Source of the DNA: Allobosea thiooxidans
Lineage (GTDB): Bacteria > Pseudomonadota > Alphaproteobacteria > Rhizobiales > Beijerinckiaceae
DNA: 64,000 bases
Assembly: GCF_900168195.1 (NCBI RefSeq)
Contig: NZ_FUYX01000001.1
Coordinates: forward strand, 124,001-188,000
Direction of reading: 5' to 3'
This document shows positions 41,819 through 63,073 of this stretch, piece by piece. The notes under the pieces were generated by a model. It did no database searches. It saw only the letters and a list, made by a program, of their open reading frames with translations, and had not been told where the DNA came from. The first letter of the stretch is position 1. Every line of letters begins with the position of its first letter. The translations under genes and the position numbers were made by a program.

Positions 41819-43270
41819 ATGGCCACGGTCCATTGGCCGGGGAACGAGGTCGCTCGCGTACCAAAACGCGCGCACCTCATCGGCGTTCCCTTCATCATGA
41901 CTGGCGACGAGGAATTTCCCGATGGCATCAACGCCTTCATCTTCGAAAGAGCGCGCGGAAAAGTCTCCGCTCTTCACGGCGCCGCTCCGCGTGTTCGCCT
42001 GCGCCCTCTCGACCGGGAGGCACGTCGCAAGATCGCTTATAATCTCGCGGACCTGTTGACCTGGGGTGAAACAGAAAGAGCTCATCCAACGCAGGGCACC
42101 ATCAGATGGGATCAACTAAAAAGCTGGCACATCCTTGAGATGTACCAGGATGCGCTTATTCGCGGATACTGGTCAGAAAACTTCTTCAGAACGAAGTCGC
42201 CGTCGCCCATTGCCCCTGAGACAGTCCGGACAAAAATCAGCCATGCCTTAGGCTGCTTCAAGTGGATGGCGGACAACGGCTTTGTCACGAATTTCGATTA
42301 CGAGCCCGCTCTTCAAACGATTACTCTTTCGAAGGACGCCTGCCTGCTCTCGTATCGCAGGGAGCTGCAACAGGCGGTTACAAATTCGGTCCCAGTCGCC
42401 GCTCGAGCGTTTCGAAAGTCGCCAGGCAATCAGCCTTTACCGACTTTGCCCCATCTCCACGCGTTCTTTTCGGCTTTGGCACCCGGGCCGCACAGGCTGA
42501 TCGCGCTGCAAATGTTCGAAACCGGCATGCGTGCAACGGAGGTCATCGAGAACACACTGATCCCAGGGCGCGTTCACCAACGCTGTATGGATCGGTCGAA
42601 GTGGCACGTACATCCGAGCTGGTCAGATCAACCGCTAACACTCGAATGGTCTTTGGGTGACGATCGAATGATCGGCGTAATACCGCCACTGGAGATGGTG
42701 GAATGGAAACTGAAGCCAGGCTCGGGCTGGGATCGCCAATCAACTCCCGGCAGCAGATTGGACTACGGTTACCAGTGCAACTATCGGATTATTGGAAAGG
42801 GCCCCAAGGTTCGCCTGGCACATCTTCCGCCCAAGCTCCTCCTAGCCATGTGGGCCTACATCAACGGAGCGCGTCGCAGTAACGAAGATTCCGCGCACGT
42901 TTACCTAAATAGATTTCAGCAAAAAATGTCGTACCATGCAATCTGGGAAGCCTTCGACGCGGCCAATCACGCGATCAAGTCACCATTACGTCTTACGCCC
43001 CACGTTATGCGGCATGCATATGCCTGCTATTTTTTGGAAGCAGCAATAATTAAAGAAGGTCAAGATCGAGGATACGACAGGAATTCTATTCCACCCGAGC
43101 TTATATTGGAGCACGGGAGCACGATTCTTCTTACTATACAATCTGATCTTGGGCATTCGGAAGCCAAATCGACCAAAAAGTACCTCGAACAGGTCGCCAA
43201 AGGTTGGATCCGAATGTCAGCCCATCAAACGTGGAACCAATTCCTGGATGAAGTTCAGCTTGATGTCTAG
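41819..43270 (+). CDS. ginA: Tyrosine recombinase, GinA-like
   Basis: 483 residues. Catalytic set visible: R238 (TGMRATEV), H395-x-x-R398 (TPHVMRHAY), H446 (LGHSEAKS) and nucleophile Y455 (TKKYLE). The N-terminal ~200 residues are a DNA-binding core domain plus extension. The ATG at 41819 follows GGAG by 8 bases; an alternative ATG at 41789 would add ten residues. First of four overlapping genes; in GInts all four are needed for integration and excision. Confidence 0.85.
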   Translation: MATVHWPGNEVARVPKRAHLIGVPFIMTGDEEFPDGINAFIFERARGKVSALHGAAPRVRLRPLDREARRKIAYNLADLLTWGETERAHPTQGTIRWDQLKSWHILEMYQDALIRGYWSENFFRTKSPSPIAPETVRTKISHALGCFKWMADNGFVTNFDYEPALQTITLSKDACLLSYRRELQQAVTNSVPVAARAFRKSPGNQPLPTLPHLHAFFSALAPGPHRLIALQMFETGMRATEVIENTLIPGRVHQRCMDRSKWHVHPSWSDQPLTLEWSLGDDRMIGVIPPLEMVEWKLKPGSGWDRQSTPGSRLDYGYQCNYRIIGKGPKVRLAHLPPKLLLAMWAYINGARRSNEDSAHVYLNRFQQKMSYHAIWEAFDAANHAIKSPLRLTPHVMRHAYACYFLEAAIIKEGQDRGYDRNSIPPELILEHGSTILLTIQSDLGHSEAKSTKKYLEQVAKGWIRMSAHQTWNQFLDEVQLDV

Positions 43271-48036: not shown

Positions 48037-48942
48037 CTACAGCCCTTGCTCGAGCCAGGCCGTGGCCATTTCCGGTTCGACTCCCGCCACCTCAATCAGC
48101 CTATCGGGATCAAGGATCCGAAGCCGCCGATAGTGGAACTCGACGATGCGTTCCTTCCGCAGCGTGCTGAGGACCCGATTGACGTGGACTGACGTCAACC
48201 CCGTCGCGTCACCGATCTGCTCCTGCGTGAGCGGGAGCGGCATTTCCTCGATGCGATTGCCCGGCCATTGAGCACGGTAGCGGGTAAACAGCTCCAATAT
48301 GAGGTGGGCGACCCGCTCTCGCGCGGACCGGCGCCCGATGCTCGTCAGGTGATCAAACGCCAGGCTGCAATCGCGGGCCAGCGAGCGCGCCAGACGCATG
48401 GTCAGCTCCGGCTCATCGCGGGACAGTGTCGCTAGCATTGAGTTAGGGATCACGGACACCACGACGCTGGTTAGCGCTAACGCCCCAAACGTTGCCTGCG
48501 ACCGATTTGATGGCAGGACCCCCAGTATGGCACCGGGTAGCGCGAACTGGACGATCTGGCGCCTGCCATCCTCAAGCTGGGTATAGAGGGCCACCCAGCC
48601 ATCGATCAGATTGAAGATGGCGTTGCCCGTCGACCCAACGCTGAAGAGGTCGCGGCCTGCTTCGATCTTTCGATCGCCCGACCGGTGGCGCGGCAACAAC
48701 CGATACCCCTCTGTTAACGAAGGTGCGGCGGCTGCGGACCACGATGCGCCATCGACGCCCGTCGAGTTATGGCGGGGACATTTGGTCAAGTCGTTAACCG
48801 CTGCACCGGCGCTACGATCAAGTTCACGCAACGGCAACTCGCAAAAGGTCGGTCCATTCCGCTCGCGCCCGATATTCTCCCAATCGTGGCGAGGGAACGA
48901 CCGGGCGATCTCCTCAGGAAAAGACGCTCGATCCAAATTCAT
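48037..48942 (-). CDS. Crp/Fnr-family transcriptional regulator
   Basis: 301 residues with a ~70-residue N-terminal extension of low complexity, a cyclic-nucleotide-binding-like beta-roll (KIEAGRDLFSVGSTGNAIFNLIDGWVALYTQLEDGRRQIVQFALPG) and a winged helix (LTQEQIGDATGLTSVHVNRVLSTLRKERIVE). The FNR iron-sulfur cysteine pattern is absent, so oxygen is not sensed that way. The recognition helix reads SVHVNR rather than ETISR, so its binding site may differ from TTGAT. A strong GGGAGGTG site precedes the ATG at 48942. Probable regulator of the cargo genes. Confidence 0.85.
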   Translation of the reverse strand: MNLDRASFPEEIARSFPRHDWENIGRERNGPTFCELPLRELDRSAGAAVNDLTKCPRHNSTGVDGASWSAAAAPSLTEGYRLLPRHRSGDRKIEAGRDLFSVGSTGNAIFNLIDGWVALYTQLEDGRRQIVQFALPGAILGVLPSNRSQATFGALALTSVVVSVIPNSMLATLSRDEPELTMRLARSLARDCSLAFDHLTSIGRRSARERVAHLILELFTRYRAQWPGNRIEEMPLPLTQEQIGDATGLTSVHVNRVLSTLRKERIVEFHYRRLRILDPDRLIEVAGVEPEMATAWLEQGL

Positions 48943-49128
48943 ATTGCACCTCCCGGGCGCACCTGGCCCGTTGCGGTGGCTGCCTCGGCAGCCCATCAGC
49001 ACTCCGGATGAAATCCCGAGCTCCTCGGCTCAGCGCGTCGGACACCCTCGGTCGGCACGACAAGGCTCACGATTGTGCGCTGGCCGACCTGTGTCGGCAG
49101 GTGGCGCACCGAATGCGAGCGCAGCGGC

Positions 49129-49581: not shown

Positions 49582-49595
49582 TTGATCGAGGTCAA
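49582..49595. promoter_or_regulatory. FNR/FixK-type box 1
   Basis: TTGATCGAGGTCAA, a perfect TTGA-N6-TCAA site. It lies 76 bases before the minus-strand gene 49129-49506 and in the same gap as box 2, so it probably serves the minus-strand gene. Confidence 0.7.
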
Positions 49596-50163: not shown

Positions 50164-50177
50164 TTAACCGAGATCAA
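50164..50177. promoter_or_regulatory. FNR/FixK-type box 3
   Basis: TTAACCGAGATCAA (reverse TTGATCTCGGTTAA), 149 bases before the DUF2933 gene. One mismatch to TTGA-N6-TCAA. Confidence 0.55.
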
Positions 50178-50325: not shown

Positions 50326-50589
50326 ATGGAACACAGTGCAGACCACCCCAACGCCCAGGATCAGAAGCGCCGATCCACGTCGTTCAAGATCGCTCTCGTC
50401 GGGTTTCTTGCAGTCGCTGCCTTCTATCTGATTGCGGAGCACCGCGCCCATCTCCTCGGCTGGCTCCCGTTGCTAATATTCCTCGCGTGCCCGCTGCTTC
50501 ATGTGTTCATGCATGGAAGACATGGAGGCCACGGCAACCAATCAATCCAGCCGTCCTCAGGTTGGCGGCAGCCTCCGCACGAACACTGA
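50326..50589 (+). CDS. DUF2933 small membrane protein
   Basis: 87 residues: charged N-terminus, one or two membrane segments (FKIALVGFLAVAAFYLIAEH; WLPLLIFLACPLLHVFMH), and a His/Gly tail FMHGRHGGHGNQ...PPHEH able to bind metal. DUF2933 proteins are common beside copper and heavy-metal genes. It ends 21 bases before the methyltransferase-like gene, so both are likely one transcript. Confidence 0.8.
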   Translation: MEHSADHPNAQDQKRRSTSFKIALVGFLAVAAFYLIAEHRAHLLGWLPLLIFLACPLLHVFMHGRHGGHGNQSIQPSSGWRQPPHEH

Positions 50590-50610
50590 TCAGGCTCCCG
50601 GAGCGCTCCC

Positions 50611-51270
50611 ATGCACGACAACGTTCCCGCCTACGGGCTTTGGTCCCTTGTTCTTCTGAACTCCGTAGTCTTCATCTTTTTTGCGTTCAGCTTCTTCAAG
50701 CCGAAATCGCCGCGCGACTGGCGCTCATTCGGGGCCTTCAGCGCCTTCATCCTGGCCCTCTTTACGGAAATGTACGGCTTCCCGCTGACGATCTACCTCC
50801 TATCCGGTTGGTTGCAGTCCAGATATCCGGACGTCAACTGGCTCTCCCACGACGCAGGACATCTTCTTGAGGAACTCTTCGGCTGGCGAGCGAACCCGCA
50901 TTTCGGCCCCTTTCACCTGCTGAGCTTCCTGTTCATCGGCGGCGGCTTCATGCTGATCGCGGCCGGTTGGAGGGTGCTCTACGAGGCTCAGCGACGCGGC
51001 ACGCTCGCCACCACTGGCATCTACGCCCGGATCAGGCATCCGCAATACGTCGGCTTCGTCCTCGTGATGTTCGGCTTCCTGCTGCAATGGCCGACGCTGC
51101 TGACGGTCGCGATGTTCCCCGTCCTGGCCTTCATGTACTGGCGGCTCGCGCGGCACGAGGAGCAGGAAGCACTAGCCGAGCACGGCGAGGCCTATGCGCG
51201 ATACATGCAGGACGTGCCCGGCTACTTTCCGCGACTTTCGTCCCATCCGACCGAAACGACGAGCCGCTAG
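50611..51270 (+). CDS. Isoprenylcysteine carboxyl methyltransferase (ICMT/PEMT) family membrane protein
   Basis: 219 residues with about five membrane helices. The family signature is in the C-terminal half: TTGIYARIRHPQYVGFVLVMFGFLLQWPTLLT, then EEQEALAEHGEAYARYMQ. These enzymes use S-adenosylmethionine on lipid-like substrates; bacterial versions are mostly uncharacterised and often near metal resistance genes. A GGAG site lies 7 bases before the ATG. Confidence 0.85.
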   Translation: MHDNVPAYGLWSLVLLNSVVFIFFAFSFFKPKSPRDWRSFGAFSAFILALFTEMYGFPLTIYLLSGWLQSRYPDVNWLSHDAGHLLEELFGWRANPHFGPFHLLSFLFIGGGFMLIAAGWRVLYEAQRRGTLATTGIYARIRHPQYVGFVLVMFGFLLQWPTLLTVAMFPVLAFMYWRLARHEEQEALAEHGEAYARYMQDVPGYFPRLSSHPTETTSR

Positions 51271-51900: not shown

Positions 51901-52386
51901 GAATTTCGAGCTGTCTGTATCCAAGTCTAAGTGAGCAACGGAACGCCAACCGATACTCGGTCGGCGGACACAACGAACTGCGGACTCCGCTCGAGCGGTA
52001 GAGGGACCGCTTTCGAGGAGCGTCTCCGCACAGGACGGGTTCGGAGAGTTGCATTGTGGTCGGTGGCCCCGGATTTGCGGTCCAAGCGCAGGTAGGCGCC
52101 CCGCGACCTCCACGTACAAAGGGAGCAAGGTTGCGAGAAAACGATATCGTGCATCCGCAACGCTTCCCATCGCAGCATGACGGAAGGAGGACCACCCGAC
52201 GCCGGCGGTTGCTCCTCACCAATCCCTGCGGCGGCAGCGACAGTGCGAGAAAGCCCGCCCGGCACTGGACCTTAATCTCGATCAAAGATTCCCGGTCGCG
52301 AAATGACGACCCTCGCGGCCACCGAAATGCTCGCCGCCGATGTGCTGTCCCGCGATATCCTCCGCGGCCGTGCCAAGGAACAGACT
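51901..52386. other. Upstream region of the P-type ATPase operon
   Basis: 486 bases to the preferred ATPase start, including FNR-type box 4 (52272-52285). No convincing gene: minus-strand frames here lack ribosome sites and have arginine-rich shadow composition. Confidence 0.55.
52272..52285. promoter_or_regulatory. FNR/FixK-type box 4
   Basis: TTAATCTCGATCAA (reverse TTGATCGAGATTAA). Activation from -41.5 would start transcription near 52320, between the ATG at 52303 and the ATG at 52387, which argues for the later start. It probably drives the whole run 52387-61731. Confidence 0.65.
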
Positions 52387-54507
52387 ATGAGTTCGCCCCA
52401 TTCTGACCATGGCCATCATGGGCATCCCGGCCATGAGGGACACCAGGCGAGCGGGCACTCGGGCCACGACCGTCACGACAACCCGAAGGTCGTCATGGCC
52501 GCCGGATCGAGCCATGCCGAGCATGCTGGGCATGGCGGACACGACCATGGCGCCATGGTCGCCGATTTTCGCCGACGCTTCTGGGTAACGCTAATCCTGA
52601 CACCGCCGGTTCTGCTGCTGTCGCCGATGATCCAGCACTGGCTCGGCATTGCCAGCGCCCTCGCCTTCCCGGGTGACGGCTATGTTCTCTTTGCACTGTC
52701 CACGGCCGCCTATCTCTACGGCGGCTGGCCGTTCCTGACGGGCTTCGTATCCGAGCTGCGCAAGGGTCAGCCCGGAATGATGACCCTGATCGCGCTGGCG
52801 ATCTCGGCGGCCTATTTCTTCTCCGCCGCCGTCACCTTCGGCTTTCCCGGGGAGGCCTTCTACTGGGAGCTCGTGACGCTCATTCTGATCATGCTGCTCG
52901 GGCACTGGGTGGAGATGCGCTCCGTCATGGGCGCCTCGCGCGCCCTCGAGGAGCTGGTACGGCTGCTGCCCGACAGCGCAACCAGGATCGAAGCCGACGG
53001 CAGCACGCGCGAAGTCCCGATCTCGGCGCTCAAGCCAGGCGACCGTGTGATCGTCCGGCCGGGTGCCAAGGTCCCCGTTGATGGCAAGATCCTGGAAGGT
53101 TCGTCGGGCTTCAACGAGGCCATGCTCACGGGCGAATCCAGGCCCGTCACCAAGACGGTCGGCGCGACGGCGATCGGCGGCGCCATCAACGGCGCCAACG
53201 CCGTGACGATCGAGGTGACCGCGACGGGCGACTCGACCTACCTCGCCCAGGTCATCGACCTCGTGAAGAAGGCCCAGGCGACGCGCTCGCGTACGCAAGA
53301 CATCGCCAACCGGGCGGCCGCTTGGCTAACATACATCGCCCTCATTGTCGGCTTTGGAACGCTCTTCGTCTGGTGGCTAGTTCTGTCCGCTCCCCTCGAA
53401 TTCGCGCTGGAGCGGATGGTCACGGTGATGGTCGTAGCGTGCCCGCATGCGCTCGGCCTAGCGGTCCCGCTCGTCGTTGCGGTCAGCACCTCGCTCAGCG
53501 CCAGCAATGGCCTGCTGATCCGGGATCGCGCCGCCTTCGAGCGGGCGCGCAATCTCGATGCCGCCGTCTTCGACAAGACGGGCACGCTGACTGAAGGCCG
53601 CTTCGGCGTCAGCGACATCGTGCTGCTCGGAAAAGGCAAGGTCGAGGAGGAGCTGGCCTTCGCGGCCGCGGCCGAAAGCCAGTCCGAGCACCCCATAGCC
53701 CATGGCATCGTCGCCGAGGCAAAGGCACGAAACATCGCGCTGCCCAAGGCAACCGAGGTCAGCAACATTACCGGCGAAGGCCTCGTCGCCAAGGTCGCAA
53801 ATCAGGAAGTGCGCATCGTCAGTCCTGGCAATCTCGCCCGGCAGGGCAAGCCCGTTAGGCATCCGGAGCTTAAGCGGCTCGAGACCGAGGGCAAGACCGT
53901 CGTCGTCCTCGTCCGCGGAGGGGAGCCCACGGCCCTGTTCGCGCTCGCTGATATTGTCAGGTCGGAATCGAGGGAGGCGATCGCCGAACTCACTCGCCTC
54001 GGCATCAGGTCTGTGATGCTGACGGGCGATGCCAAAGGTGTTGCAGAGACCGTCTCCAAGGAACTCGGCATCGCCGAGTTCTTCGCCGAGGTACTCCCCG
54101 ACCAGAAGTCCGAGAAGATTAAGGAGCTTCAGGCGCGCGGGCTCTCCGTCGCCATGGTCGGCGACGGCGTCAACGACGCGCCAGCCCTCGTCCAGGCCGA
54201 TCTGGGAGTCGCTATCGGCGCAGGCACCGACGTCGCCGTGGAATCGGCCGACGTAGTGCTCGTCAGAAGCGACCCGCGTGACGTCGCGGCGATCCTTGGC
54301 CTGTCGCGCGCGACCTATCGCAAGATGGTTCAGAACCTGATCTGGGCGACCGGCTACAACACCATCGCTATCCCGATGGCCGCCGGAATCTCCTTCGGCA
54401 CGGGCTTCCTGATGACCCCGGCCGTGGCCGCCGTATTCATGTCCGCCAGTACTGTGATCGTCGCGATCAACGCACAGTTCCTGCGCTTCTACAGGCGCCA
54501 GGCATGA
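52387..54507 (+). CDS. P1B-type heavy-metal ATPase, CPH (CopB-like) class
   Basis: 706 residues from ATG 52387 (734 from 52303). His-rich N-terminus (HGHHGHPGHEGH, HAGHGGHDHG) in place of HMA domains; eight membrane helices expected; ion-site motif CPHALGLAVP in helix 6, TGES actuator loop, DKTGT phosphorylation site, and GDGVNDAP hinge. CPH pumps of the P1B-3 type export Cu(II)/Cu(I) or Ag(I). It is the first gene of a coupled operon, its stop overlapping the next start (ATGA). Confidence 0.92.
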   Translation: MSSPHSDHGHHGHPGHEGHQASGHSGHDRHDNPKVVMAAGSSHAEHAGHGGHDHGAMVADFRRRFWVTLILTPPVLLLSPMIQHWLGIASALAFPGDGYVLFALSTAAYLYGGWPFLTGFVSELRKGQPGMMTLIALAISAAYFFSAAVTFGFPGEAFYWELVTLILIMLLGHWVEMRSVMGASRALEELVRLLPDSATRIEADGSTREVPISALKPGDRVIVRPGAKVPVDGKILEGSSGFNEAMLTGESRPVTKTVGATAIGGAINGANAVTIEVTATGDSTYLAQVIDLVKKAQATRSRTQDIANRAAAWLTYIALIVGFGTLFVWWLVLSAPLEFALERMVTVMVVACPHALGLAVPLVVAVSTSLSASNGLLIRDRAAFERARNLDAAVFDKTGTLTEGRFGVSDIVLLGKGKVEEELAFAAAAESQSEHPIAHGIVAEAKARNIALPKATEVSNITGEGLVAKVANQEVRIVSPGNLARQGKPVRHPELKRLETEGKTVVVLVRGGEPTALFALADIVRSESREAIAELTRLGIRSVMLTGDAKGVAETVSKELGIAEFFAEVLPDQKSEKIKELQARGLSVAMVGDGVNDAPALVQADLGVAIGAGTDVAVESADVVLVRSDPRDVAAILGLSRATYRKMVQNLIWATGYNTIAIPMAAGISFGTGFLMTPAVAAVFMSASTVIVAINAQFLRFYRRQA

Positions 54508-55529
54508 CCTCCACGGCCTCACAGGAATCCGCGATGCGGCTGATCCTTCCCCTGCCCGGAAACGAGACCTTCGCGCAACGGCTGGCAAACGCTGGCGGAT
54601 GGGAGCTCGGCGTGCTCGAAGTACGACGTTTTCCCGATGGCGAGAGCTATGTGCGCCTGTTGTCGGACGTTGTGGGCAAGTCGGTCTATCTCGTCTGCAC
54701 GCTGGCCAGGCCGGACGAGGGCTTCCTGCGCCTGGTCTTCGCTGCCGATGCGGCCCGCTCGCTCGGAGCACGGACGGTGTCGTTGATCGCGCCTTACCTC
54801 TCCTACATGCGGCAGGATCGCCGCTTCCGGGCCGGAGAGGCCGTGACCTCGAGAAGCTTTGCGCGGCTCATCTCGTCGAGCTTCGACAGGCTGGTAACCG
54901 TCGACCCGCACCTGCATCGCTATCCGGCGCTTTCCTCCCTCTACGCCATTCCCACGAATACGCTGCACGCGGCCCCGCTTCTCGCCGACTGGATCGCGGA
55001 GGAAGTCCGCTCGCCCCTCGTCATCGGCCCGGACGAGGAAAGCGAGCAATGGGTCTCGGCGATTGCCGAGCGAGCACGCGCTCCCTGGACGGTTCTTCGC
55101 AAGGTGAGGCATGGGGATCGCAGCGTCGATGTCGATGTGCCCGACCTGTCCGCATGGCAGGGGCGTCAACCCGTCCTCGTCGACGATATCGCCTCGTCCG
55201 GCCACACCCTGATCGAGGCGGCGCGCAAGCTCCCGCCGCAAGGATTTCCCAAGCCCGTCATTGCGGTCGTCCATCCCATCTTCGCCGAGAACTCCTACGC
55301 CCGCCTGCGTGCTCTATCCGAAAGGATCGTCTCCGCGGACGCAGTCGAGCACGAGAGCAATGCCATCGGTCTTGCCTCGCTGATCGCAGGCGAGTTGTCG
55401 GTCGCGGAAAATACAGCGGAACAACTCGTGCGGCGGCGCAGGCCGCCCGAGCCGCGCGACGAGGTTGAGCAAGCCGGATATGACTCCTTTCCGGCCAGTG
55501 ACCCGCCATCCTGGACGTCCGGCCGATGA
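54504..55529 (+). CDS. Ribose-phosphate pyrophosphokinase homologue with C-terminal tail
   Basis: 341 residues. Conserved: RRFPDGESYVRL (ATP site), PYLSYMRQDRRF, VDPHLHRY, and the PRPP loop VDDIASSGHTLIEAA (usual form VDDMIDTGGT). Normal PRPP synthetase makes PRPP from ribose 5-phosphate and ATP. It diverges from housekeeping Prs and ends in a tail with DSFPASDPPSWT, a motif found alone in small alphaproteobacterial proteins. It may act on ribose phosphates made by the phosphorylase at 59690. Starts at the ATGA overlap. Confidence 0.82.
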   Translation: MTSTASQESAMRLILPLPGNETFAQRLANAGGWELGVLEVRRFPDGESYVRLLSDVVGKSVYLVCTLARPDEGFLRLVFAADAARSLGARTVSLIAPYLSYMRQDRRFRAGEAVTSRSFARLISSSFDRLVTVDPHLHRYPALSSLYAIPTNTLHAAPLLADWIAEEVRSPLVIGPDEESEQWVSAIAERARAPWTVLRKVRHGDRSVDVDVPDLSAWQGRQPVLVDDIASSGHTLIEAARKLPPQGFPKPVIAVVHPIFAENSYARLRALSERIVSADAVEHESNAIGLASLIAGELSVAENTAEQLVRRRRPPEPRDEVEQAGYDSFPASDPPSWTSGR

Positions 55530-55906
55530 AACCTCCCACGCAAATCGAGGTCCCGGGCAGGCCGAATGCGGTGACGAGCGCGAGGCTCAAGCGATCCGAA
55601 TTGGCCTCTACTTTAGGCGCCGCTCTGTTCGGCGGCGGCCTCGGATTGCTGGTCGCCCGCTACGTTGCCGACCTTACGGGTCCCTTACTGCTGGCGGGAG
55701 CGCTCGTCCATGCCTGGGGAATGTACGACAAGCACGCAATCGAGCGGGACCTGGGGCGGCCCGAGGCTCCGTGGATGAGGGCGTTGTACTGGCTGTGCTG
55801 GCTGGTTCTGGCGGGCGTGGCTGCCACGATCATTCTGAGAGCGCTCCTCTATGCGGCTTCGGTCCAGGTATCCGCCAGCGCAGCAGCAGGCGCTCTTCTC
55901 TCCTGA
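55526..55906 (+). CDS. Hypothetical membrane protein in phosphoketolase operon
   Basis: 126 residues with three to four hydrophobic segments (LGAALFGGGLGLLVARYVADLTGPLLLAGALVHAWGMY; ALYWLCWLVLAGVAATIILRALLY). Start overlaps the previous stop (ATGA). Its position suggests it belongs to the operon; function unknown. Confidence 0.7.
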   Translation: MKPPTQIEVPGRPNAVTSARLKRSELASTLGAALFGGGLGLLVARYVADLTGPLLLAGALVHAWGMYDKHAIERDLGRPEAPWMRALYWLCWLVLAGVAATIILRALLYAASVQVSASAAAGALLS

Positions 55907-55934
55907 GAGCAATCCGCGCAGAAAGGTCCAGCGA

Positions 55935-58319
55935 GTGAACCACGACCCATCTCCCGAATTTCTGCGTTGGGCCAATGGCTACGGCGTCATCGAGCACTCG
56001 TCCGAAACCAGGGATCGCGTCCGGGCCCTGGGGGCGCGGCTGATCGCGGCCGGCAGAACGACCGAAGTGGATGCGTATTACCGCTTGCTCGCGGCAGCGG
56101 ACCGCCTCGCGTCGGCCGCCATGTGGGCCGTCGTCCACATGACCTATGCCCGAAGGATGGACCTCTCCGGCGCGCCTTTGCCGCCGGAGGCCTTCAAGGC
56201 CACACCGGAGGGACATACCGGCGGCTCGCTCAACATGGTTCCCGCATTCGTCGGCTATCTCGTCGCCAACGCGATCACCGCGACGACGCGCTCCTGGCTC
56301 ATGGGACAGGGGCATTGCGTCGCCTCCATCGAGGCGATCAACGCCCTTACCGGAGACGTGTCCGCCGTCCAAAAGGGCCGCTACGATCGTAGCGAAGCCG
56401 GGCTTTCGAGGCTTGCCGCCGACTTCTATTCCTATGCGATCGACGCAAGCGGACACGCCTCGGTTCCCCTCGGAAGCCACGCCGGCCCCAACACGGCCGG
56501 TGCGATCTCGGAGGGAGGGTACCTCGGCTTTGCCGAGGTCCAATACGTTCACATGCCGCTCCCCGGCGAGCGGCTGGTCGCGTTCCTGAGCGACGGCGCC
56601 TTCGAGGAACAACGAGGTTCCGATTGGACGCCGCGCTGGTGGCGCGCCGAGGATTCCGGCATCGCGGTCCCGGTGATGATCCTCAACGGTCGCAGGATCG
56701 AGGAGCGAGCCCAAATCGCACAGCAGGGTGGCTCAGACTGGCTCGCCTCCCATCTGCGCCATAATGGGTTCGACCCTTTCTCGATCGACGGGCGGGATCC
56801 AGCAGCCTTTGCCTGGGCGATCCTCACGGCGGAGGAGCGGCTCGAACGCTTCGCGGCCCGCCCGGACCGCCGCTATCCCGCGCCGATCCCCTACGTCATC
56901 GCCGAGACGGTCAAGGGCTTCGGGTTCCCTGGAGCGGGCACCAACGCCGCGCATAACCTGCCGCTCGGCGGCAACCCGTCGAACGACGAGGTCGCGCGCC
57001 AAGCGTTCAACGATGCCGCGCGGTCCCTCTTCGTGCCGTCGGACGAGCTCGATCGTGCCATCGGCGCGCTGGCGGTTCACGGGAAACAGAACCGCCCGCC
57101 CGAGAGTCGGCACCCGCTGGCGTTCCGGCACCCGCCCTCCCCTCGACTTCCTGAGCCCGATTGGACGAGGGCCGGCAGCCCGGCAGATTGCGCTATGCAT
57201 GCGCTCGACCGGTGGTTCGTGCGCCTGGTCGACCACAACCCGGAACTGAGGTCGCGCGTCGGAAACCCCGACGAACTGCGATCCAATCACATGGGCGCTA
57301 CGCTCGATCGCCTGCGCCATCGCGTGAACGTCTGCGAACCCGGGACCTCGGAGGCCGTGGACGGAGCGGTCATCACCGCCCTAAACGAGGAAGCGGTGGC
57401 GGGCGCGGCGCTTGCCAACAAAGGCGGCCTCAACCTGATCGTCAGTTACGAGGCCTTCGCCATGAAGATGCTCGGCGGCCTGCGACAGGAAATCGTCTTC
57501 GCCCGGCGACAGCGCGAGATCGGACGGCAGCCAGGCTGGATATCCGTGCCGCTCGTCGTCACCTCCCACACCTGGGAGAATTCCAAGAACGAGCAGTCGC
57601 ATCAGGATCCCACGATCGGCGAGGCACTACTCGGCGAGATGTCGGACACCGCACGCGTCCTGTTCCCGGTCGACGCCAACACCGCCATGGCCGCCTTGCG
57701 CTCGGTCTATGGCGGCCGCGGACAGGTGGCCTGCCTGATCGTCTCCAAGCGCGACATGCCGCATCGGCTCGAAGCCGAGACGGCCACCCGGTTCGTGGAG
57801 GACGGCGCGGCCCATTTCGAGGGCGTGCCGGACGCAGCCGACCTACAGATCGTCGCGATCGGCGCCTATCAGTTGGAAGAGGCGCTGAAGGCCGCCAGCC
57901 GACTTGGACGGCACGGTCATCGAGTCCTAGTCACAGGAATCTGCGAACCCGGACGCTTTCGTCAACCGCGCGATCCTATCGAGGCGGCCTTTACGGCAGG
58001 CGACGATGCAGTCGCGGCGTTGTTCCCGCCGGATCTGCCGCGCGTGATCGTGACCCATACGAGGCCTGAACCCATGCTTGGCCTGTTGCGGCGGCTGGAC
58101 GGCGGACCACGGCGGACCACGGCGCTCGGCTATATCAGCCGCGGCGGCACGTTCGACGTGCCCGGGATGCTCTTCGCCAATCGTTGTTCGTGGGCGCATC
58201 TGGTGGATGCGGCGGCGCCGCTCGCTGGTTGGTCCCGAGACGACTTGCTCACTCCCGACGAGCGCGACGCCATTAATGGACGCGGCGACCCGGCCCACCT
58301 CCTAATCTCAACGACCTGA
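55935..58319 (+). CDS. Phosphoketolase-family (XFP-like) enzyme, divergent
   Basis: 794 residues from a GTG at 55935 with AAAGG 8 bases before. Phosphoketolase cleaves xylulose 5-phosphate (or fructose 6-phosphate) with phosphate to acetyl phosphate and an aldose phosphate. Family landmarks: EGHTGGSLNMVPA, GSHAGPNTAGAISEGGYLGF, LNEEAVAGAALANKGGLNLIVSYEAF, and NEQSHQDPTIGEAL. The thiamine motif reads LSDGAFEEQRGSDW, unlike the usual GDGEAETGPLA, so it is a distinct branch and specificity may differ. Confidence 0.85.
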   Translation: MNHDPSPEFLRWANGYGVIEHSSETRDRVRALGARLIAAGRTTEVDAYYRLLAAADRLASAAMWAVVHMTYARRMDLSGAPLPPEAFKATPEGHTGGSLNMVPAFVGYLVANAITATTRSWLMGQGHCVASIEAINALTGDVSAVQKGRYDRSEAGLSRLAADFYSYAIDASGHASVPLGSHAGPNTAGAISEGGYLGFAEVQYVHMPLPGERLVAFLSDGAFEEQRGSDWTPRWWRAEDSGIAVPVMILNGRRIEERAQIAQQGGSDWLASHLRHNGFDPFSIDGRDPAAFAWAILTAEERLERFAARPDRRYPAPIPYVIAETVKGFGFPGAGTNAAHNLPLGGNPSNDEVARQAFNDAARSLFVPSDELDRAIGALAVHGKQNRPPESRHPLAFRHPPSPRLPEPDWTRAGSPADCAMHALDRWFVRLVDHNPELRSRVGNPDELRSNHMGATLDRLRHRVNVCEPGTSEAVDGAVITALNEEAVAGAALANKGGLNLIVSYEAFAMKMLGGLRQEIVFARRQREIGRQPGWISVPLVVTSHTWENSKNEQSHQDPTIGEALLGEMSDTARVLFPVDANTAMAALRSVYGGRGQVACLIVSKRDMPHRLEAETATRFVEDGAAHFEGVPDAADLQIVAIGAYQLEEALKAASRLGRHGHRVLVTGICEPGRFRQPRDPIEAAFTAGDDAVAALFPPDLPRVIVTHTRPEPMLGLLRRLDGGPRRTTALGYISRGGTFDVPGMLFANRCSWAHLVDAAAPLAGWSRDDLLTPDERDAINGRGDPAHLLISTT

Positions 58320-58334
58320 AGGGCCGTCACGCTC

Positions 58335-59693
58335 ATGCTCACGCTCACCTCCCTCGGCGGCGCCGGTACGGTTACCGGCTCCAAGCATCTTCTTGCCCAC
58401 AACGACACCCGCATCCTGATCGATTGCGGCCTGTTCCAGGGTCTCAAGAACCTGCGCGATCTGAACTGGGAACCGCTGCCCATCGACCCGTCGAGCATCG
58501 ATGCGGTGGTGCTGACGCACGCCCACCTCGATCATTCCGGCTATCTACCGCGGCTGGTTCGGGAGGGCTTTCGCGGCAAGATTTTCGCAACTGCGGCCAC
58601 AAGCGACATCGCCCAGTTGATCCTGATGGACGCTGCCCATCTCAACGAGAAGGACGCCGAATACGCCAACAGGAAGGGCTTCTCGAAGCACAAGCCAGCC
58701 CTGCCGCTCTACGGAAGTCATGATGCCGAGCGCGCTCTCGAATGCTTCACATCGATTCCGTTCGGCGACGTCGTTCGGCTCCCTGGCGGGGCCACGCTGA
58801 GGTTCCGGCACGCCGGGCACATCCTGGGTGCCGCCACCGCCGATATCGAATGGGGCGGACGCCGCATCGCCTTCTCCGGCGACATCGGGCGCTACGACGA
58901 CCCGGTACTTCCCGATCCAGAGGTCGTGCCCGATGCGGACTATGTTCTCGTGGAATCGACCTACGGTAACCGCCTCCACGACCCGGCTGATCCCACCGAG
59001 GCGCTCGGCGCCATCGTCAAGAGAACGGTCGAGCGGGGCGGCACGCTAGTGATCCCGGCCTTCGCGGTCGGGCGCGCGCAATCGCTGCTCTACCATTTGT
59101 GGAAGCTCAAGACGAACGGGCAGCTTGCCAACATCCCGGTCTACCTGGACAGTCCCATGGCGATCGATGCAACCAATCTGCTGCACAACCATCGCGCGGA
59201 CCATCGGCTCCCTGCCGAGATGTGCGCCGCAATCTGTGGGGTCGCGACCTATACACGGGACGTAGAGGGTTCCAAGGCGATCACGGCCAGCCCCTATCCC
59301 AAGGTGGTGATCTCGGCGAGTGGAATGGCGACCGGCGGACGCGTCCTCCACCATCTCAAGGCATTTGCCCCCGACTCGAAGAATACGATCCTGTTCTCCG
59401 GCTTCCAGTCTGCGGGCACCCGAGGCCGCGCCATGCTGCAAGGCGCACGCGAGACCAAGATCCATGGCGAGTGGATTCCCGTCCAGGCGGAAGTCGCCGA
59501 GTTGTCGATGCTTTCGGCCCACGCTGACGCGAACGAACTGATGCGCTGGTTGTCCGGCTTTCGGCGCGCGCCCAGCCGCGCCTTCATCGTTCACGGCGAA
59601 GATGACGCCTCGGAGGCCCTGCGCGTACGGATCGACCGCGAGCTCGGCTGGAACGCCACCGTCCCCCGCATGAACCAGTCCTTCGACCTATGA
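58335..59693 (+). CDS. Metallo-beta-lactamase-fold RNA-processing hydrolase (beta-CASP/RMMBL)
   Basis: 452 residues. N-terminal LTSLGGAGTVTGSKHLL, zinc ligands in THAHLDHSGYLP, beta-CASP insertion after SGDIGRYDDPVLPDPE, and the C-terminal RNA-specificity domain with LSAHADANELMRWLSGFRRAP and VHGE. Homologues process or degrade RNA (CPSF73/TTHA0252 type). It begins 15 bases after the phosphoketolase gene and overlaps the phosphorylase gene by ATGA. Confidence 0.92.
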   Translation: MLTLTSLGGAGTVTGSKHLLAHNDTRILIDCGLFQGLKNLRDLNWEPLPIDPSSIDAVVLTHAHLDHSGYLPRLVREGFRGKIFATAATSDIAQLILMDAAHLNEKDAEYANRKGFSKHKPALPLYGSHDAERALECFTSIPFGDVVRLPGGATLRFRHAGHILGAATADIEWGGRRIAFSGDIGRYDDPVLPDPEVVPDADYVLVESTYGNRLHDPADPTEALGAIVKRTVERGGTLVIPAFAVGRAQSLLYHLWKLKTNGQLANIPVYLDSPMAIDATNLLHNHRADHRLPAEMCAAICGVATYTRDVEGSKAITASPYPKVVISASGMATGGRVLHHLKAFAPDSKNTILFSGFQSAGTRGRAMLQGARETKIHGEWIPVQAEVAELSMLSAHADANELMRWLSGFRRAPSRAFIVHGEDDASEALRVRIDRELGWNATVPRMNQSFDL

Positions 59694-61216
59694 CGATGCC
59701 CAGCGATCCCCCCATCATCCAGCCGACATTGCGCGTCAAGCGGCTACACCTGCACTCGCAGCACCAGGCGGTTGTCGTCATGCGGACCGACTGCCACGTC
59801 TGTCGCTCCGAGGGATTGGCCGCTCGGTCCCAGGTCTTGCTTTCCTATGGTGAGCGGCATGTCCAGGCGACGCTGTTCCAGGTCGAGGGGGATTCGCTCC
59901 TCGCGCCAGATGAGGCCGGGCTTTCCGAGACGGCCTGGGACCTCCTCGGCGTCACGGAGGGTGAGGCGATCAGCGTAAGCCATCCGCCCGCCATCTCCTC
60001 ACTGGCAAGCGTGCGCCGTCGCATCTACGGCAATCGGCTCGACGCGCAGGCGTTCTCCGATATCGTCGGGGACGTTGTGGCCGGACGCTACACCGACGTC
60101 CATCTGGCAGCCTTCCTGACGGCCAGTGCCGCCTTGCCACTGAACGAGGACGAGACGGCCGAGCTGACGGATGCGATGGTCAAGGTCGGCGGCCATCTGC
60201 GATGGGATGCGCCGATCGTGGTCGACAAGCACTGCGTCGGCGGCCTTCCCGGCAACCGAACGACCCCGATCGTCGTCGCGATCGTTGCCGCGAACGGCCT
60301 GGTCATGCCCAAGACCTCCTCCCGCGCCATCACCTCTCCGGCGGGAACGGCCGATACCATGGAGACGCTCGCGCCGGTCGATCTCGACATGGCGACGCTG
60401 CGGCGAGTGGTCGAGGCCGAGGGCGGATGCGTGGCATGGGGCGGAGCCGTGCATCTGAGCCCCGCGGACGACATCTTCGTGCGCGTCGAGCGTGAGCTCG
60501 ACGTGGACACCGAGGGTCAGCTCATCGCATCGGTCCTCTCGAAGAAGATCGCCGCCGGCTCAACCCATGTCGTCATCGACATCCCCGTCGGGCCTACCGC
60601 CAAGGTCCGCAGTGGTGAAGCTGCCGATCAGCTCGCAGATCGCATGCGCGCGGTCGCGGCACGTTTTGGTCTCAGCGCGACATGTATCCAGACCGACGGG
60701 GCACAGCCCGTGGGGCGCGGCATCGGCCCGGCCCTCGAGGCATTCGATGTCCTCGCCGTGCTTCAGAACGCACCCGCTGCCCCCGACGATCTGCGCCACC
60801 GTGCCGCCCTGCTCGCGGGCGCGGCCCTTGAGATCGGTGGCAAGGCCGAACAAGGACGCGGCACCGTGATGGCCCTTGAAACGTTGAGCAGCGGCAAGGC
60901 CTGGACGAAGTTCGAGGCAATCTGCCGGGCGCAGGGCGGGTTGCGCGCACCGCCAAAGGCCTCGAGCGTCCACGCGCTCGTCGCCCCAAGCGCTGGTCGC
61001 GTGGTTCATATCGACAACCGCAAGGTCGCCAGGCTTGCCAAGCTGGCGGGAGCGCCGGAGGCCAAGGCCGCGGGCGTCCATATGGAGGTCCGGCTGGGCG
61101 CGACGATCGACAGGGGTCAGCCCCTCCTGCATGTCCACGCCGAAACGGCTTCGGAATTATCCTACGCGCTCGACTACGCCTCGCGTGCCGGAGACATCGT
61201 CAAGGTCGAGCCGTGA
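59690..61216 (+). CDS. AMP phosphorylase/thymidine phosphorylase family enzyme (long form)
   Basis: 508 residues, the length of archaeal AMP phosphorylases (about 500) rather than E. coli DeoA (about 440). An extra N-terminal ~85-residue beta domain precedes the nucleoside phosphorylase core. The phosphate loop DKHCVGGLPGNRTTPIVVAI and SSRAITSPAGTADTMETLAPVDLD follow the AMP phosphorylase pattern; C-terminal PYNP-like domain. Expected reaction: NMP plus phosphate to base plus ribose 1,5-bisphosphate. Starts at the ATGA overlap; ATG at 59696 is an alternative. Confidence 0.85.
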   Translation: MTMPSDPPIIQPTLRVKRLHLHSQHQAVVVMRTDCHVCRSEGLAARSQVLLSYGERHVQATLFQVEGDSLLAPDEAGLSETAWDLLGVTEGEAISVSHPPAISSLASVRRRIYGNRLDAQAFSDIVGDVVAGRYTDVHLAAFLTASAALPLNEDETAELTDAMVKVGGHLRWDAPIVVDKHCVGGLPGNRTTPIVVAIVAANGLVMPKTSSRAITSPAGTADTMETLAPVDLDMATLRRVVEAEGGCVAWGGAVHLSPADDIFVRVERELDVDTEGQLIASVLSKKIAAGSTHVVIDIPVGPTAKVRSGEAADQLADRMRAVAARFGLSATCIQTDGAQPVGRGIGPALEAFDVLAVLQNAPAAPDDLRHRAALLAGAALEIGGKAEQGRGTVMALETLSSGKAWTKFEAICRAQGGLRAPPKASSVHALVAPSAGRVVHIDNRKVARLAKLAGAPEAKAAGVHMEVRLGATIDRGQPLLHVHAETASELSYALDYASRAGDIVKVEP

Positions 61217-61731
61217 GGCTCGAGCTATGGCCTTCCACGCTGGCTTGTCCCGGGACGCAGGCGTTCAACGTCTACCAACGAGCCATGCATTGGATCGTGC
61301 CGCTCCTTTGCATCATCCAGGTGCCGACGGCCTGGGCGATCCAGCGCACGCACCTGGCGCACGGCTTCCTCAAGCCTGCTCCCATCGACTTGTTCCTGCA
61401 TCAGGTTCACGCCTGGAGCGGATGGCTGATCCTGCTGATGGCGCTGCTACAGCTTGCGATACGGCTCGTCCGCGGCAAGCCCCTTCCTACCGATGGCACC
61501 TCGCGATTGGAAGCTCGGGTAGCTTCAGTCACACACATAGCGCTGTACGGCCTCTTGATCGCGCTGCCGGTGACCGGAACGATCGCGATGTATCTCACCT
61601 TCCGGGTCGCGCCTCTCCATAGATACCTGAGCTGGTTGCTCCTGGCATTGGTCCTCATCCACATCGTCGCTGCGCTCTGGCATCACCTCTATCGCCGGGA
61701 CGACGTCTTGCGCAGGATGATCAAGGGCTGA
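61213..61731 (+). CDS. Cytochrome b561 family protein
   Basis: 172 residues, four membrane helices. Haem-ligand histidines: YQRAMHWIVP (helix 1), LHQVHAWSGWLI (helix 2), and HIVAALWHHLYRRDDVLRRM at the end (helix 4). Di-haem b-type electron carrier in the inner membrane. GTG start overlaps the phosphorylase stop (GTGA). Last gene of the coupled run. Confidence 0.9.
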   Translation: MRLELWPSTLACPGTQAFNVYQRAMHWIVPLLCIIQVPTAWAIQRTHLAHGFLKPAPIDLFLHQVHAWSGWLILLMALLQLAIRLVRGKPLPTDGTSRLEARVASVTHIALYGLLIALPVTGTIAMYLTFRVAPLHRYLSWLLLALVLIHIVAALWHHLYRRDDVLRRMIKG

Positions 61732-61789: not shown

Positions 61790-63073
61790 ATGGACTCGTT
61801 GATCCCGCAGCTCGGCCTTGCTCTGGCCATCGGCTTGCTCGTCGGACTGGAGCGTGGGTGGCGAGAACGCGACACGCCCGATGGCGGCCGGACGGCGGGT
61901 ATACGCACCTATGGGATCTCTGGACTGCTGGGCGGCGTCGCCGCGGCCCTCAGCCTCAGCCTGAACACGCCCTCGGTCCTCATCGCCACGTTCCTGGCCT
62001 TCACCGCCGTCTTTGCGTGGTACCAGGCGCGCGAATCCATGCACGACGAGAGCTTCAGCGTGACCGGTGTCATCGCCGCTCTCGGCGTGTTCGCGCTCGG
62101 CGCCCTCGCGGTCACGGGCGATCAACGCGTCGCGGCGGCGGGCGGAGCCGCGCTCGCGGCCGTTCTTGCCAGTCGCGATCTCCTGCACGGGCTGCTCAGG
62201 AGGATTTCCTGGATCGAACTGCGCTCGGCACTCGTGCTCGCCGTGATGACCGCGATCGTCCTGCCCCTCCTGCCTGCGCGTACGATCGATCCATGGGGAG
62301 GCTTCAACCCCCGGCAAGTGTGGCTGTTCACGGTGCTGACGGCCGCGATTTCCTATCTCGGCTATATCGCCGTCCGGGCCCTCGGTACCGCTCGCGGCGT
62401 CCTGGTAGGCGGCCTGGCAGGCGCGATCGTCTCCTCGACCGCCGTCACCGTCGCGCTGGCGCGAACGGCGGCAGCGGGAGGAAGTCCCTGGCCGCTCGCC
62501 GGAGCGGCTGCGCTCGCCGCGGGCGTTTCCGTGCTGCGCGTGGCGGGGATCGTAACCATCGTCGCGCCATCGCTGCTCGGCGTTTCCGGCACCGCGATGC
62601 TTGCCGCGATTGTCGGCTTCGGGGCATCCGGCGCCCTCTTTCTGTCGCGGGGACGGGTGGACGGAGACGGTACGGAACCGCCCCGAAATCCCTTCGAGCT
62701 CGGACCGCTCCTGGCCTTCGCCGTGCTCTTCGGCGTCGTCTCGACGATCAGCGCCGTGCTGTCGATCGGAAGCAGCCGCGGAATGATCGCGACCTCCGCG
62801 ATCTCGGGGCTCTTCGACGTGGACGTCGCCGTGCTCAGCGCCTTGCGGCTTCTCGGGCAGTCGGCATCGCCCGAGGCCGTCGGCCACGCTGTCCTGCTAG
62901 CGCTAGCGAGCAATGCTGTCGGGCGCATCTCGGTCGCGATCGCAACCGGACCTGTCCGCTTCTGGTTGCCATACATCGGCGCCACGATCGTCGCGGCTGC
63001 GTCGGGTTACGCGGCATTCGTCACCTTGCCGCATTTCGAATGGGCGGGCCTCCTGGGCACTCCGAATCCTTGA
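61790..63073 (+). CDS. MgtC/SapB family protein with DUF4010 domain
   Basis: 427-residue membrane protein. N-terminal MgtC/SapB domain (LALAIGLLVGLERGWRERD...GIRTYGISGLLGGV), C-terminal DUF4010 region with six or more helices (AILSYLGYIAVRALGTARGVLVGGLAGAIVSSTAVTVALAR). The true MgtC binds or senses Mg-related signals; the function of MgtC-DUF4010 fusions is unknown. It begins 59 bases after cytochrome b561 and its stop overlaps FNR-type box 5. Confidence 0.88.
   Translation: MDSLIPQLGLALAIGLLVGLERGWRERDTPDGGRTAGIRTYGISGLLGGVAAALSLSLNTPSVLIATFLAFTAVFAWYQARESMHDESFSVTGVIAALGVFALGALAVTGDQRVAAAGGAALAAVLASRDLLHGLLRRISWIELRSALVLAVMTAIVLPLLPARTIDPWGGFNPRQVWLFTVLTAAISYLGYIAVRALGTARGVLVGGLAGAIVSSTAVTVALARTAAAGGSPWPLAGAAALAAGVSVLRVAGIVTIVAPSLLGVSGTAMLAAIVGFGASGALFLSRGRVDGDGTEPPRNPFELGPLLAFAVLFGVVSTISAVLSIGSSRGMIATSAISGLFDVDVAVLSALRLLGQSASPEAVGHAVLLALASNAVGRISVAIATGPVRFWLPYIGATIVAAASGYAAFVTLPHFEWAGLLGTPNP

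What the first reader, a model, noticed from the sequence alone, without database searches (positions are those of the whole stretch)
52387..61731. Coupled operon that could convert RNA-derived nucleotides to acetyl phosphate
Seen: seven genes in one run, most overlapping by 1-4 bases, encoding CPH ATPase, PRPP-synthetase homologue, membrane protein, divergent phosphoketolase, beta-CASP RNA hydrolase, long-form AMP/thymidine phosphorylase and cytochrome b561. Known: AMP phosphorylase releases ribose 1,5-bisphosphate; phosphoketolase yields acetyl phosphate from pentose phosphates; beta-CASP proteins cut RNA. Inferred: RNA to NMP, to ribose phosphates (with the PRPP-synthetase homologue as a link), to acetyl phosphate and ATP, as an oxygen-limited survival route. 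Missing: a clear ribose-1,5-bisphosphate isomerase, which the odd PRPP-synthetase homologue might replace. A related gene mix is known, as far as I recall, from the low-oxygen-activated locus of Burkholderia cenocepacia.
Basis: partly seen in the sequence, partly recalled or inferred. Interest (0 to 1): 0.8.

Follow-up and report, generated by a model that had tools for sequence, protein, structure and literature searches.

The report
Low-oxygen nucleotide and phosphoketolase gene cluster
A mobile set of bacterial genes, found in many relatives and apparently switched on when oxygen is scarce, probably breaks nucleotides down to sugar phosphates and then to an energy-rich acetyl compound; most parts are recognisable, but the link between the two halves is unproven.

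Summary
The seven genes are real and read as described (52303-61731, a Bosea genome). TP (long thymidine-phosphorylase homologue), PRPPs (PRPP-synthetase homologue) and beta-CASP hydrolase recur together in proteobacteria and on a Bacteroidota plasmid. The phosphoketolase is a deep sister subfamily with catalytic residues kept and substrate pocket altered. Of its 80 best-matching loci (560 found), 76 have beta-CASP, 63 TP, 63 PRPPs and 30 acetate kinase within 10 kb. TP resembles archaeal AMP/NMP phosphorylase more than DeoA: 54 against 8 diagnostic positions. FNR/FixK-type boxes are enriched in the island (6 against 0.7) and upstream of this operon (30 of 76 loci).

Against the full pathway: 9 of 11 genomes tested with the phosphoketolase but no neighbouring TP have no credible long TP; none of 18 TP loci not picked for a phosphoketolase has one nearby; 28 TP loci from other sources show little box excess; many sit in copper islands. 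R15P isomerase reaches cut-off in 0 of 39 genomes, PhnN in 19. Verdict: a real, low-oxygen-linked module; the RNA-to-acetyl-phosphate chain is inference with one open step.

The parts
48037..49002 (-). Crp/Fnr-family regulator, possible local regulator of the island
   Evidence: PF13545, PF00027; FnrL/FixK/Fnr models matched below cut-off; 59% identical to a Crp/Fnr gene beside the Agrobacterium copy
49582..49595 (.). exact FNR/FixK-type box TTGATCGAGGTCAA
49645..49658 (.). FNR/FixK-type box, one mismatch
50164..50177 (.). FNR/FixK-type box, one mismatch
50326..51270 (+). DUF2933 protein (50326-50589) and isoprenylcysteine-methyltransferase-like protein (50611-51270); accompany the module or a metal ATPase elsewhere
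   Evidence: ICMT-like gene in 16 of 80 loci
52272..52285 (.). FNR/FixK-type box TTAATCTCGATCAA upstream of the operon; similar boxes in relatives (TTAACCTCGATCAA)
52387..54507 (+). P1B copper/heavy-metal ATPase with His-rich N-terminus and CPH motif (longest frame from 52303)
   Evidence: TIGR01525, TIGR01511 over cut-off; ATPase of 35% identity or more in 28 of 80 loci
54504..55529 (+). PRPP-synthetase homologue (PRK07199 type)
   Evidence: 426 against 322 bits; motif residues kept; a second homologue, 31% identical, in the same genome
55526..55906 (+). small membrane protein, no family match
   Evidence: 4 of 80 loci
55935..58319 (+). divergent phosphoketolase (GTG start preferred; ATG at 55851 possible)
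   Evidence: PF03894, PF09364 over cut-off; AlphaFold model nearest to phosphoketolases; residues; separate clade
58335..59693 (+). beta-CASP metallo-beta-lactamase, likely ribonuclease
   Evidence: PF10996, PF07521; nearest solved structure RNase TTHA0252; metal-ligand motifs visible in the translation (motifs recalled)
59690..61216 (+). long-form thymidine-phosphorylase homologue, NMP-phosphorylase-like
   Evidence: TIGR02645 over cut-off, TIGR03327 below it; 54 against 8 diagnostic positions for T. kodakarensis AMP phosphorylase over DeoA
61213..61731 (+). cytochrome b561-like membrane protein
   Evidence: PF01292; 11 of 80 loci
61790..63073 (+). MgtC/DUF4010 membrane protein, probable further member of the run
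   Evidence: PF13194, PF02308; 15 of 80 loci

Best explanation
A horizontally mobile, oxygen-responsive module that turns nucleotides into pentose phosphate and, in this lineage, into acetyl phosphate. Shown by sequence: a beta-CASP ribonuclease-type hydrolase, an NMP-phosphorylase-like TP, a PRPP synthetase homologue and a divergent phosphoketolase with the mapped catalytic residues kept, in one conserved run under an FNR/FixK-like box. Inferred: when oxygen fails, (1) the beta-CASP enzyme and other RNases release NMPs; (2) TP splits NMP with phosphate into base and ribose 1,5-bisphosphate (R15P); (3) R15P becomes PRPP (by PhnN where present) and the operon's PRPP synthetase, run backwards on rising AMP, gives ribose 5-phosphate plus ATP, or the homologue takes R15P itself; (4) housekeeping isomerases give xylulose 5-phosphate; (5) the phosphoketolase gives acetyl phosphate and glyceraldehyde 3-phosphate; (6) acetate kinase makes ATP. 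Step 3 is the least secure. The core is TP-PRPPs-beta-CASP; the phosphoketolase is an add-on, seen beside the trio from two phosphoketolase clades.
For: Conserved genes and tight spacing. TP and PRPPs overlap in Legionella fallonii, Sphingobium xenophagum and Bradyrhizobium septentrionale; the trio is also on a Bacteroidota plasmid. TP signature nearer NMP phosphorylase than DeoA, with a true DeoA elsewhere in the genome. Phosphoketolase fold and residues. Acetate kinase in 30 and type II GAPDH in 16 of 80 loci; acetate kinase directly upstream, sharing one base, in Alteromonas. An ordinary phosphoketolase beside the trio in Legionella fallonii and Shinella. FNR/FixK boxes. FixK2-dependence of the Bradyrhizobium TP, MBL, phosphoketolase and acetate kinase genes. 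PhnN and two acetate kinases in the genome.
Against: Phosphoketolase with beta-CASP but no credible long TP in 8 genomes, part of 9 of 11 tested that lack it (completeness of these genomes not told). No phosphoketolase near TP in 18 of 18 loci not picked for one. PhnN over cut-off in only 19 of 39 genomes and R15P isomerase in 0 of 39, so 20 show neither known R15P enzyme; among the 36 with TP in the stretch read, 18 show neither. TP below the AMP-phosphorylase cut-off (472 against 535) and keeps Lys180 of DeoA where T. kodakarensis has Val. Boxes upstream of 28 TP loci from other sources: 4 against 1.8 expected. One abstract calls PRPP synthesis irreversible (PMC9221600, search listing), another an interconversion (PMC10249872 abstract).
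Confidence: 0.42

Rival explanations
1. A low-oxygen stress island whose genes share a regulator but not a pathway. The phosphoketolase is fed by the ordinary pentose phosphate pathway and makes acetyl phosphate from sugars; TP and PRPPs serve nucleotide salvage; beta-CASP processes transcripts.
For: Phosphoketolase with beta-CASP but no credible TP genome-wide in 8 genomes; no phosphoketolase near TP in 18 of 18 loci; phosphoketolase directly before gnd in Phenylobacterium, whose trio lies about 60 kb away on the same plasmid; mixed stress neighbours such as universal stress proteins and alcohol dehydrogenases.
Against: Tight, often overlapping, conserved order in the phosphoketolase loci and adjacency in two phosphoketolase clades.
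Confidence: 0.3
2. A copper-stress operon. The ATPase exports copper; the spare PRPP synthetase replaces a copper-inhibited housekeeping enzyme; TP and phosphoketolase rebalance pentose and nucleotide pools.
For: P1B ATPase first in the operon and within 10 kb in 28 of 80 phosphoketolase loci and 7 of 18 TP loci; copper regulators, pumps or resistance genes beside TP-PRPPs; copper inhibits Prs in S. aureus and more prs lowers sensitivity (PMC10249872, abstract read); a second PRPPs homologue in the genome.
Against: Does not explain the phosphoketolase, acetate kinase or ribonuclease; FNR/FixK boxes at this operon, while copper-regulator sites were not searched for; TP-PRPPs loci without copper genes in the stretch read.
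Confidence: 0.18
3. TP is a nucleoside phosphorylase: RNA goes through nucleosides to ribose 1-phosphate and, by phosphopentomutase, to ribose 5-phosphate and the phosphoketolase, so no bisphosphate step is needed.
For: TP below the AMP-phosphorylase cut-off; keeps the DeoA lysine (K180); removes the missing-isomerase problem.
Against: 54 against 8 diagnostic positions favour the NMP phosphorylase; the genome already has DeoA; leaves the linked PRPPs unexplained.
Confidence: 0.1

Closest known systems
Archaeal NMP (AMP) phosphorylase pathway / pentose bisphosphate pathway, Thermococcus kodakarensis (PMC9700705, PMC8376864, passages read)
   Same: TP is 41% identical to T. kodakarensis AMP phosphorylase over 436 positions and shares its signature blocks; would release R15P from NMPs.
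   Different: No R15P isomerase over cut-off in 39 of 39 genomes; a phosphoketolase and PRPPs stand beside TP. Rubisco was not searched.
Bradyrhizobium diazoefficiens FixK2 regulon: bll3117-bll3116-bll3115 and bll2518-bll2517 (PMC6515984, PMC9104804, passages read)
   Same: TP, PRPPs and MBL in one predicted unit; phosphoketolase with acetate kinase in another; bll3117, bll3115, bll2518, bll2517 lowered without FixK2 in microoxia; bll3115-3117 and bll2518 listed in a table of the microoxia study (column heads not seen). A homologous trio stands in B. septentrionale.
   Different: There the phosphoketolase is in a separate unit; here a divergent phosphoketolase lies inside the run with a Cu-type ATPase and b561. 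B. diazoefficiens sequences themselves were not compared.
Low-oxygen-activated (lxa) locus of Burkholderia cenocepacia (PMC6127331, passages read)
   Same: Low-oxygen locus with a metallo-beta-lactamase protein, universal stress proteins and an alcohol dehydrogenase.
   Different: Phosphoketolase and thymidine phosphorylase are not in that paper's main text; the DOI that I recalled for the original lxa paper is not held.
Xylulose 5-phosphate/fructose 6-phosphate phosphoketolase (Bifidobacterium Xfp)
   Same: Fold (TM about 0.74); equivalents of His64, His97, His142, Gly155, His320, Ser440, Glu479, Asn549, His553 and Lys605 kept (residue list from PMC10547157 passages; I placed the numbers on the alignment by hand).
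   Different: Gln321 to Asn, Gln546 to Asn, His548 to Lys, Arg442 variable, GDG to SDG; separate clade; far below NCBIfam subfamily cut-offs.

Membership tests
AMP phosphorylase (TIGR03327) | curated score cut-off 535 | tested here: not met
   472.2 bits; TIGR02645, named putative thymidine phosphorylase, is met (576 against 434.6)
AMP phosphorylase (TIGR03327) | residues shared with T. kodakarensis enzyme rather than DeoA | tested here: met
   54 against 8 positions among those invariant in four TPs; K180 is an exception
AMP phosphorylase (TIGR03327) | phosphorolysis of NMP to R15P | not testable with these tools
   needs an assay
Thymidine phosphorylase DeoA (TIGR02643) | curated score cut-off 570.7 | tested here: not met
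   122.8 bits; the genome's other copy scores 656.6
Phosphoketolase XFP | Pfam domains and fold | tested here: met
   PF03894 136.2 and PF09364 48.8 bits; ranks 1-20 of the 50 structures listed are phosphoketolases, the rest transketolases
Phosphoketolase XFP | ThDP and catalytic residues | tested here: met
   ten mapped residues kept; Tyr501 not mapped; Gln321, Gln546, His548 replaced
Phosphoketolase XFP | NCBIfam subfamily cut-offs | tested here: not met
   139.9 against 962 at best E-value: an outlying subfamily
Ribose-phosphate diphosphokinase PRK07199 | cut-off 322 and motif residues | tested here: met
   426.1 bits; FPDxE, RQD, DxH, KxR, DD...T kept (roles of motifs recalled)
Beta-CASP ribonuclease | Beta-Casp and RMMBL domains | tested here: met
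   PF10996, PF07521
Archaeal pentose bisphosphate pathway | R15P isomerase | tested here: not met
   own genome's IF-2B protein is MtnA; 0 of 39 other genomes over cut-off (15 with weaker matches), controls over it in 3 of 14
Archaeal pentose bisphosphate pathway | type III Rubisco | not tested
   not searched
FNR/FixK regulon | TTGAY-N4-RTCAA-like box upstream (up to one mismatch) | tested here: met
   6 in 48-64 kb against mean 0.7, 0 of 100 shuffles; whole window 8 against 2.8, 2 of 100 shuffles; 30 of 76 operon loci against 5.5 expected; only 4 of 28 TP loci from other sources
lxa locus | orthologous gene set | tested here: inconclusive
   PMC6127331 passages only; sequences not compared

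The most novel reading that the evidence does not exclude
The operon's PRPP-synthetase homologue itself consumes ribose 1,5-bisphosphate, passing its C1 phosphate to AMP or ADP and yielding ribose 5-phosphate. This would close a bacterial NMP-to-acetyl-phosphate route that needs neither R15P isomerase, Rubisco nor PhnN. A variant: the altered phosphoketolase pocket, with its invariant extra lysine, accepts a pentose bisphosphate directly.
Probability: 0.13. Interest if true: 0.85.

Novelty: new variant of a known kind. Interest (0 to 1): 0.55.

Why it matters
If true, bacteria would have their own mobile version of the archaeal nucleotide-to-energy route, ending in acetyl phosphate rather than Rubisco, and RNA would be an oxygen-crisis fuel. 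It also defines a widespread phosphoketolase subfamily that public plasmid records name as an epimerase, and poses a sharp question: what handles ribose 1,5-bisphosphate in the 20 of 39 genomes where neither PhnN nor R15P isomerase reaches cut-off.

Tried and rejected
R15P isomerase in the genome: the one IF-2B hit is MtnA. My first reading of that locus was on the wrong strand (protein 8, no family; and the IF-2B and PhnN queries are void for the same kind of error); one search uses the right frames. The name 'xylulose 5-phosphate 3-epimerase' for the phosphoketolase subfamily: 12 papers hold the phrase and none of the abstract beginnings shown concerns this protein; fold and residues say phosphoketolase, so I take the name as a transfer error. 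A general low-oxygen box upstream of TP: 4 of 28 loci from other sources against 1.8 expected. Five of those 28 do have a phosphoketolase (L022, L023, L029, L030, L181), and none of these five shows a box; that script's chain-building often missed PRPPs, and L022 began inside the run, so its starts are approximate. TP neighbourhoods: of 33 loci read, 23 have TP of 48% identity or more; I set aside five of these (L029, L031, L032 picked through PRPPs; L030 and L181 picked after a phosphoketolase was seen on the plasmid), leaving 18: PRPPs 14, beta-CASP 13, P1B ATPase of 32% identity or more 7, phosphoketolase 0 (one of the 18, L173, is from a plasmid known to carry the phosphoketolase about 60 kb away). 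L175 and L178 show TP with neither partner. The 10 loci with TP below 48% show no PRPPs. Genomes tested for a TP elsewhere: 11 of the 17 loci without TP; the other six were left untested, three of them on short cut contigs. Box count: 4 of 80 loci dropped for lack of 600 bases upstream. PhnN search: in many genomes only 65 of the first-look candidates were scored. Structure alignment: L060 dropped for a stop in frame. The 5'-phosphate pocket of TP could not be checked; one search found no paper on it. The tree's split between the two phosphoketolase clades has very long branches.


Full report
What is there. The run 52303-61731 holds seven + strand genes: P1B ATPase, PRPP-synthetase homologue (PRPPs), small membrane protein, divergent phosphoketolase, beta-CASP hydrolase, long thymidine-phosphorylase homologue (TP) and cytochrome b561. 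Four of six junctions overlap by 4 bases. An MgtC/DUF4010 gene follows. The closest named records are Bosea (Bosea sp. 67-29 100%, B. vaviloviae 99%), so I take the window as Bosea; its genome has 5.37 Mb in 34 contigs. Of 37 genomes of the genus searched, itself included, three carry this phosphoketolase type (own, 99%, 77%); the other matches in the 61-genome search are phosphoketolases at 24-29%. Patchy presence, plasmid copies and integrase-like genes at 41789-47167 beside the island point to horizontal transfer.

Conserved neighbourhood. A scan of named genomes with seven phosphoketolase sequences found 560 relatives, of which the best 80 were kept, so this sample leans to near kin and includes a near-identical record (L034). 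Within 10 kb (less at contig ends) beta-CASP is in 76, PRPPs in 63, TP in 63, acetate kinase in 30, a Cu-type ATPase of 35% identity or more in 28, type II GAPDH in 16, MgtC in 15, phosphate acetyltransferase in 14 and b561 in 11 of 80. Spacings are operon-like: beta-CASP and TP overlap in 50 of 64 measured pairs, with starts estimated from alignments. Named plasmids show the same order in Agrobacterium and a permuted order in Sulfitobacter. In Alteromonas acetate kinase lies directly upstream of the phosphoketolase and shares one base with it. In Legionella fallonii and Shinella an ordinary phosphoketolase from the other clade sits beside the same trio. The trio also occurs on a Bacteroidota plasmid.

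The view from TP is different. In a class-wide sample 21 of 152 genomes, own included, have a long TP at E of 1e-60 or better. Of 33 TP loci read, 23 have TP of 48% identity or more; leaving out five chosen for other reasons, 18 remain: PRPPs in 14, beta-CASP in 13, a P1B ATPase in 7, a phosphoketolase in 0. Conversely, 17 of the 80 phosphoketolase loci have no TP in the stretch read; I tested the genomes of 11 of these, and 9 have no credible long TP anywhere (one of them a fragment match at 2e-5), while in 8 of these 9 beta-CASP still follows the phosphoketolase. The core is therefore TP-PRPPs-beta-CASP; the phosphoketolase is a partner, not an obligatory one.

The enzymes. TP scores 576 bits with TIGR02645 (cut-off 434.6), 472 with the archaeal AMP phosphorylase model (cut-off 535) and 123 with the DeoA model TIGR02643. 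Against the printed part of the T. kodakarensis enzyme it is 41% identical, against the genome's own DeoA 29%. Of positions invariant in four TPs, 54 agree with T. kodakarensis and not DeoA and 8 the reverse, one of them a lysine (K180) in a motif that I recall as phosphate-binding. The genome already has a true DeoA (656.6 bits). This favours nucleotides as substrates but does not prove it. PRPPs is an ordinary PRK07199 member with motif residues kept; a second homologue, 31% identical, is in the genome. The beta-CASP protein is nearest in solved structures to RNase TTHA0252. The phosphoketolase model (mean pLDDT 79.5; several loops that hold active-site residues are below 50) matches phosphoketolases in the top 20 places (TM 0.73-0.75) and transketolases in the remaining 30 listed. 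Its histidines and other core residues are kept, while Gln321, Gln546, His548 and Arg442 are replaced or variable (residue list from passages of PMC10547157). It may thus make acetyl phosphate, perhaps from an unusual donor.

Control. Six FNR/FixK-like boxes lie in 48-64 kb against a mean of 0.7 in 100 shuffles, none of which reached six; two lie in the other 48 kb. For the whole window it is 8 against 2.8, reached by 2 of 100 shuffles. A Crp/Fnr-family gene lies at 48037-49002. In 30 of 76 phosphoketolase loci a box lies within 600 bases upstream of the run, against 5.5 expected from the loci's own density; among those that begin with the ATPase and have 600 bases upstream, 12 of 17 (related sequences, not independent). 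In 28 TP loci from other sources it is 4 against 1.8 expected, so oxygen control is not shown to be general. In B. diazoefficiens bll3117 and bll3115 of the trio unit and both genes of the phosphoketolase-acetate kinase unit bll2518-bll2517 are lowered without FixK2 in microoxia, with predicted FixK2 sites (PMC9104804, passages); bll3115-bll3117 and bll2518 are also in a table of the microoxia study PMC6515984 (passages; column heads not seen). A homologous trio with overlapping genes stands in B. septentrionale beside a universal stress protein.

The missing step. No R15P isomerase: the genome's IF-2B protein is MtnA, and 0 of 39 other genomes with this phosphoketolase locus (36 of them with TP in the stretch read) reach the cut-off, while 3 of 14 controls do. 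PhnN, named in NCBIfam as the PRPP-forming bisphosphokinase, is over cut-off in the window genome and in 19 of 39 others (18 of the 36 with TP). With PhnN, PRPPs run in reverse would give ribose 5-phosphate and ATP, a better fit for the gene than an isomerase role. Where PhnN is absent, either PRPPs takes R15P itself or TP does not make it. That fork is the most useful outcome of this study.

Copper. Many TP-PRPPs loci lie among copper genes. Copper inhibits PRPP synthetase in S. aureus (PMC10249872, abstract), so a spare PRPPs beside a copper pump makes sense. This rival explains the ATPase, but not the phosphoketolase or acetate kinase.

Print. In the held library no paper was found that proposes this route: searches, judged by listings (subscription journals are mostly missing). 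The FixK2-dependence of these genes in Bradyrhizobium is already in print. I rate the finding a new variant of a known kind.

Noticed in passing
window 41789-47167: Three large consecutive overlapping frames at G+C about 0.51-0.53 from 42 kb (flanks about 0.6-0.7); the first and third match Phage_integrase. I recall recombinase-in-trio elements of this shape. Probably marks how the island arrived.
   Followed up: partly
window 50326-51270: DUF2933 and an isoprenylcysteine-methyltransferase-like gene; the pair recurs near the trio or metal ATPases on plasmids.
   Followed up: partly
L020 14989-17358, L023, L024 and other plasmid records: The divergent phosphoketolase subfamily is named xylulose 5-phosphate 3-epimerase in public plasmid records; probably a naming error.
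   Followed up: partly
L177 2829-6597: Pontibacter (Bacteroidota) plasmid carries MBL-TP-PRPPs, just after a gene with an ATP-cone domain.
   Followed up: no
L030 and L176: Pentose-phosphate genes near TP: an ordinary phosphoketolase in Shinella HZN7, gnd in Qipengyuania.
   Followed up: no
L175, L178: Long TP on Variovorax and Cupriavidus replicons without PRPPs or beta-CASP in the stretch read.
   Followed up: no
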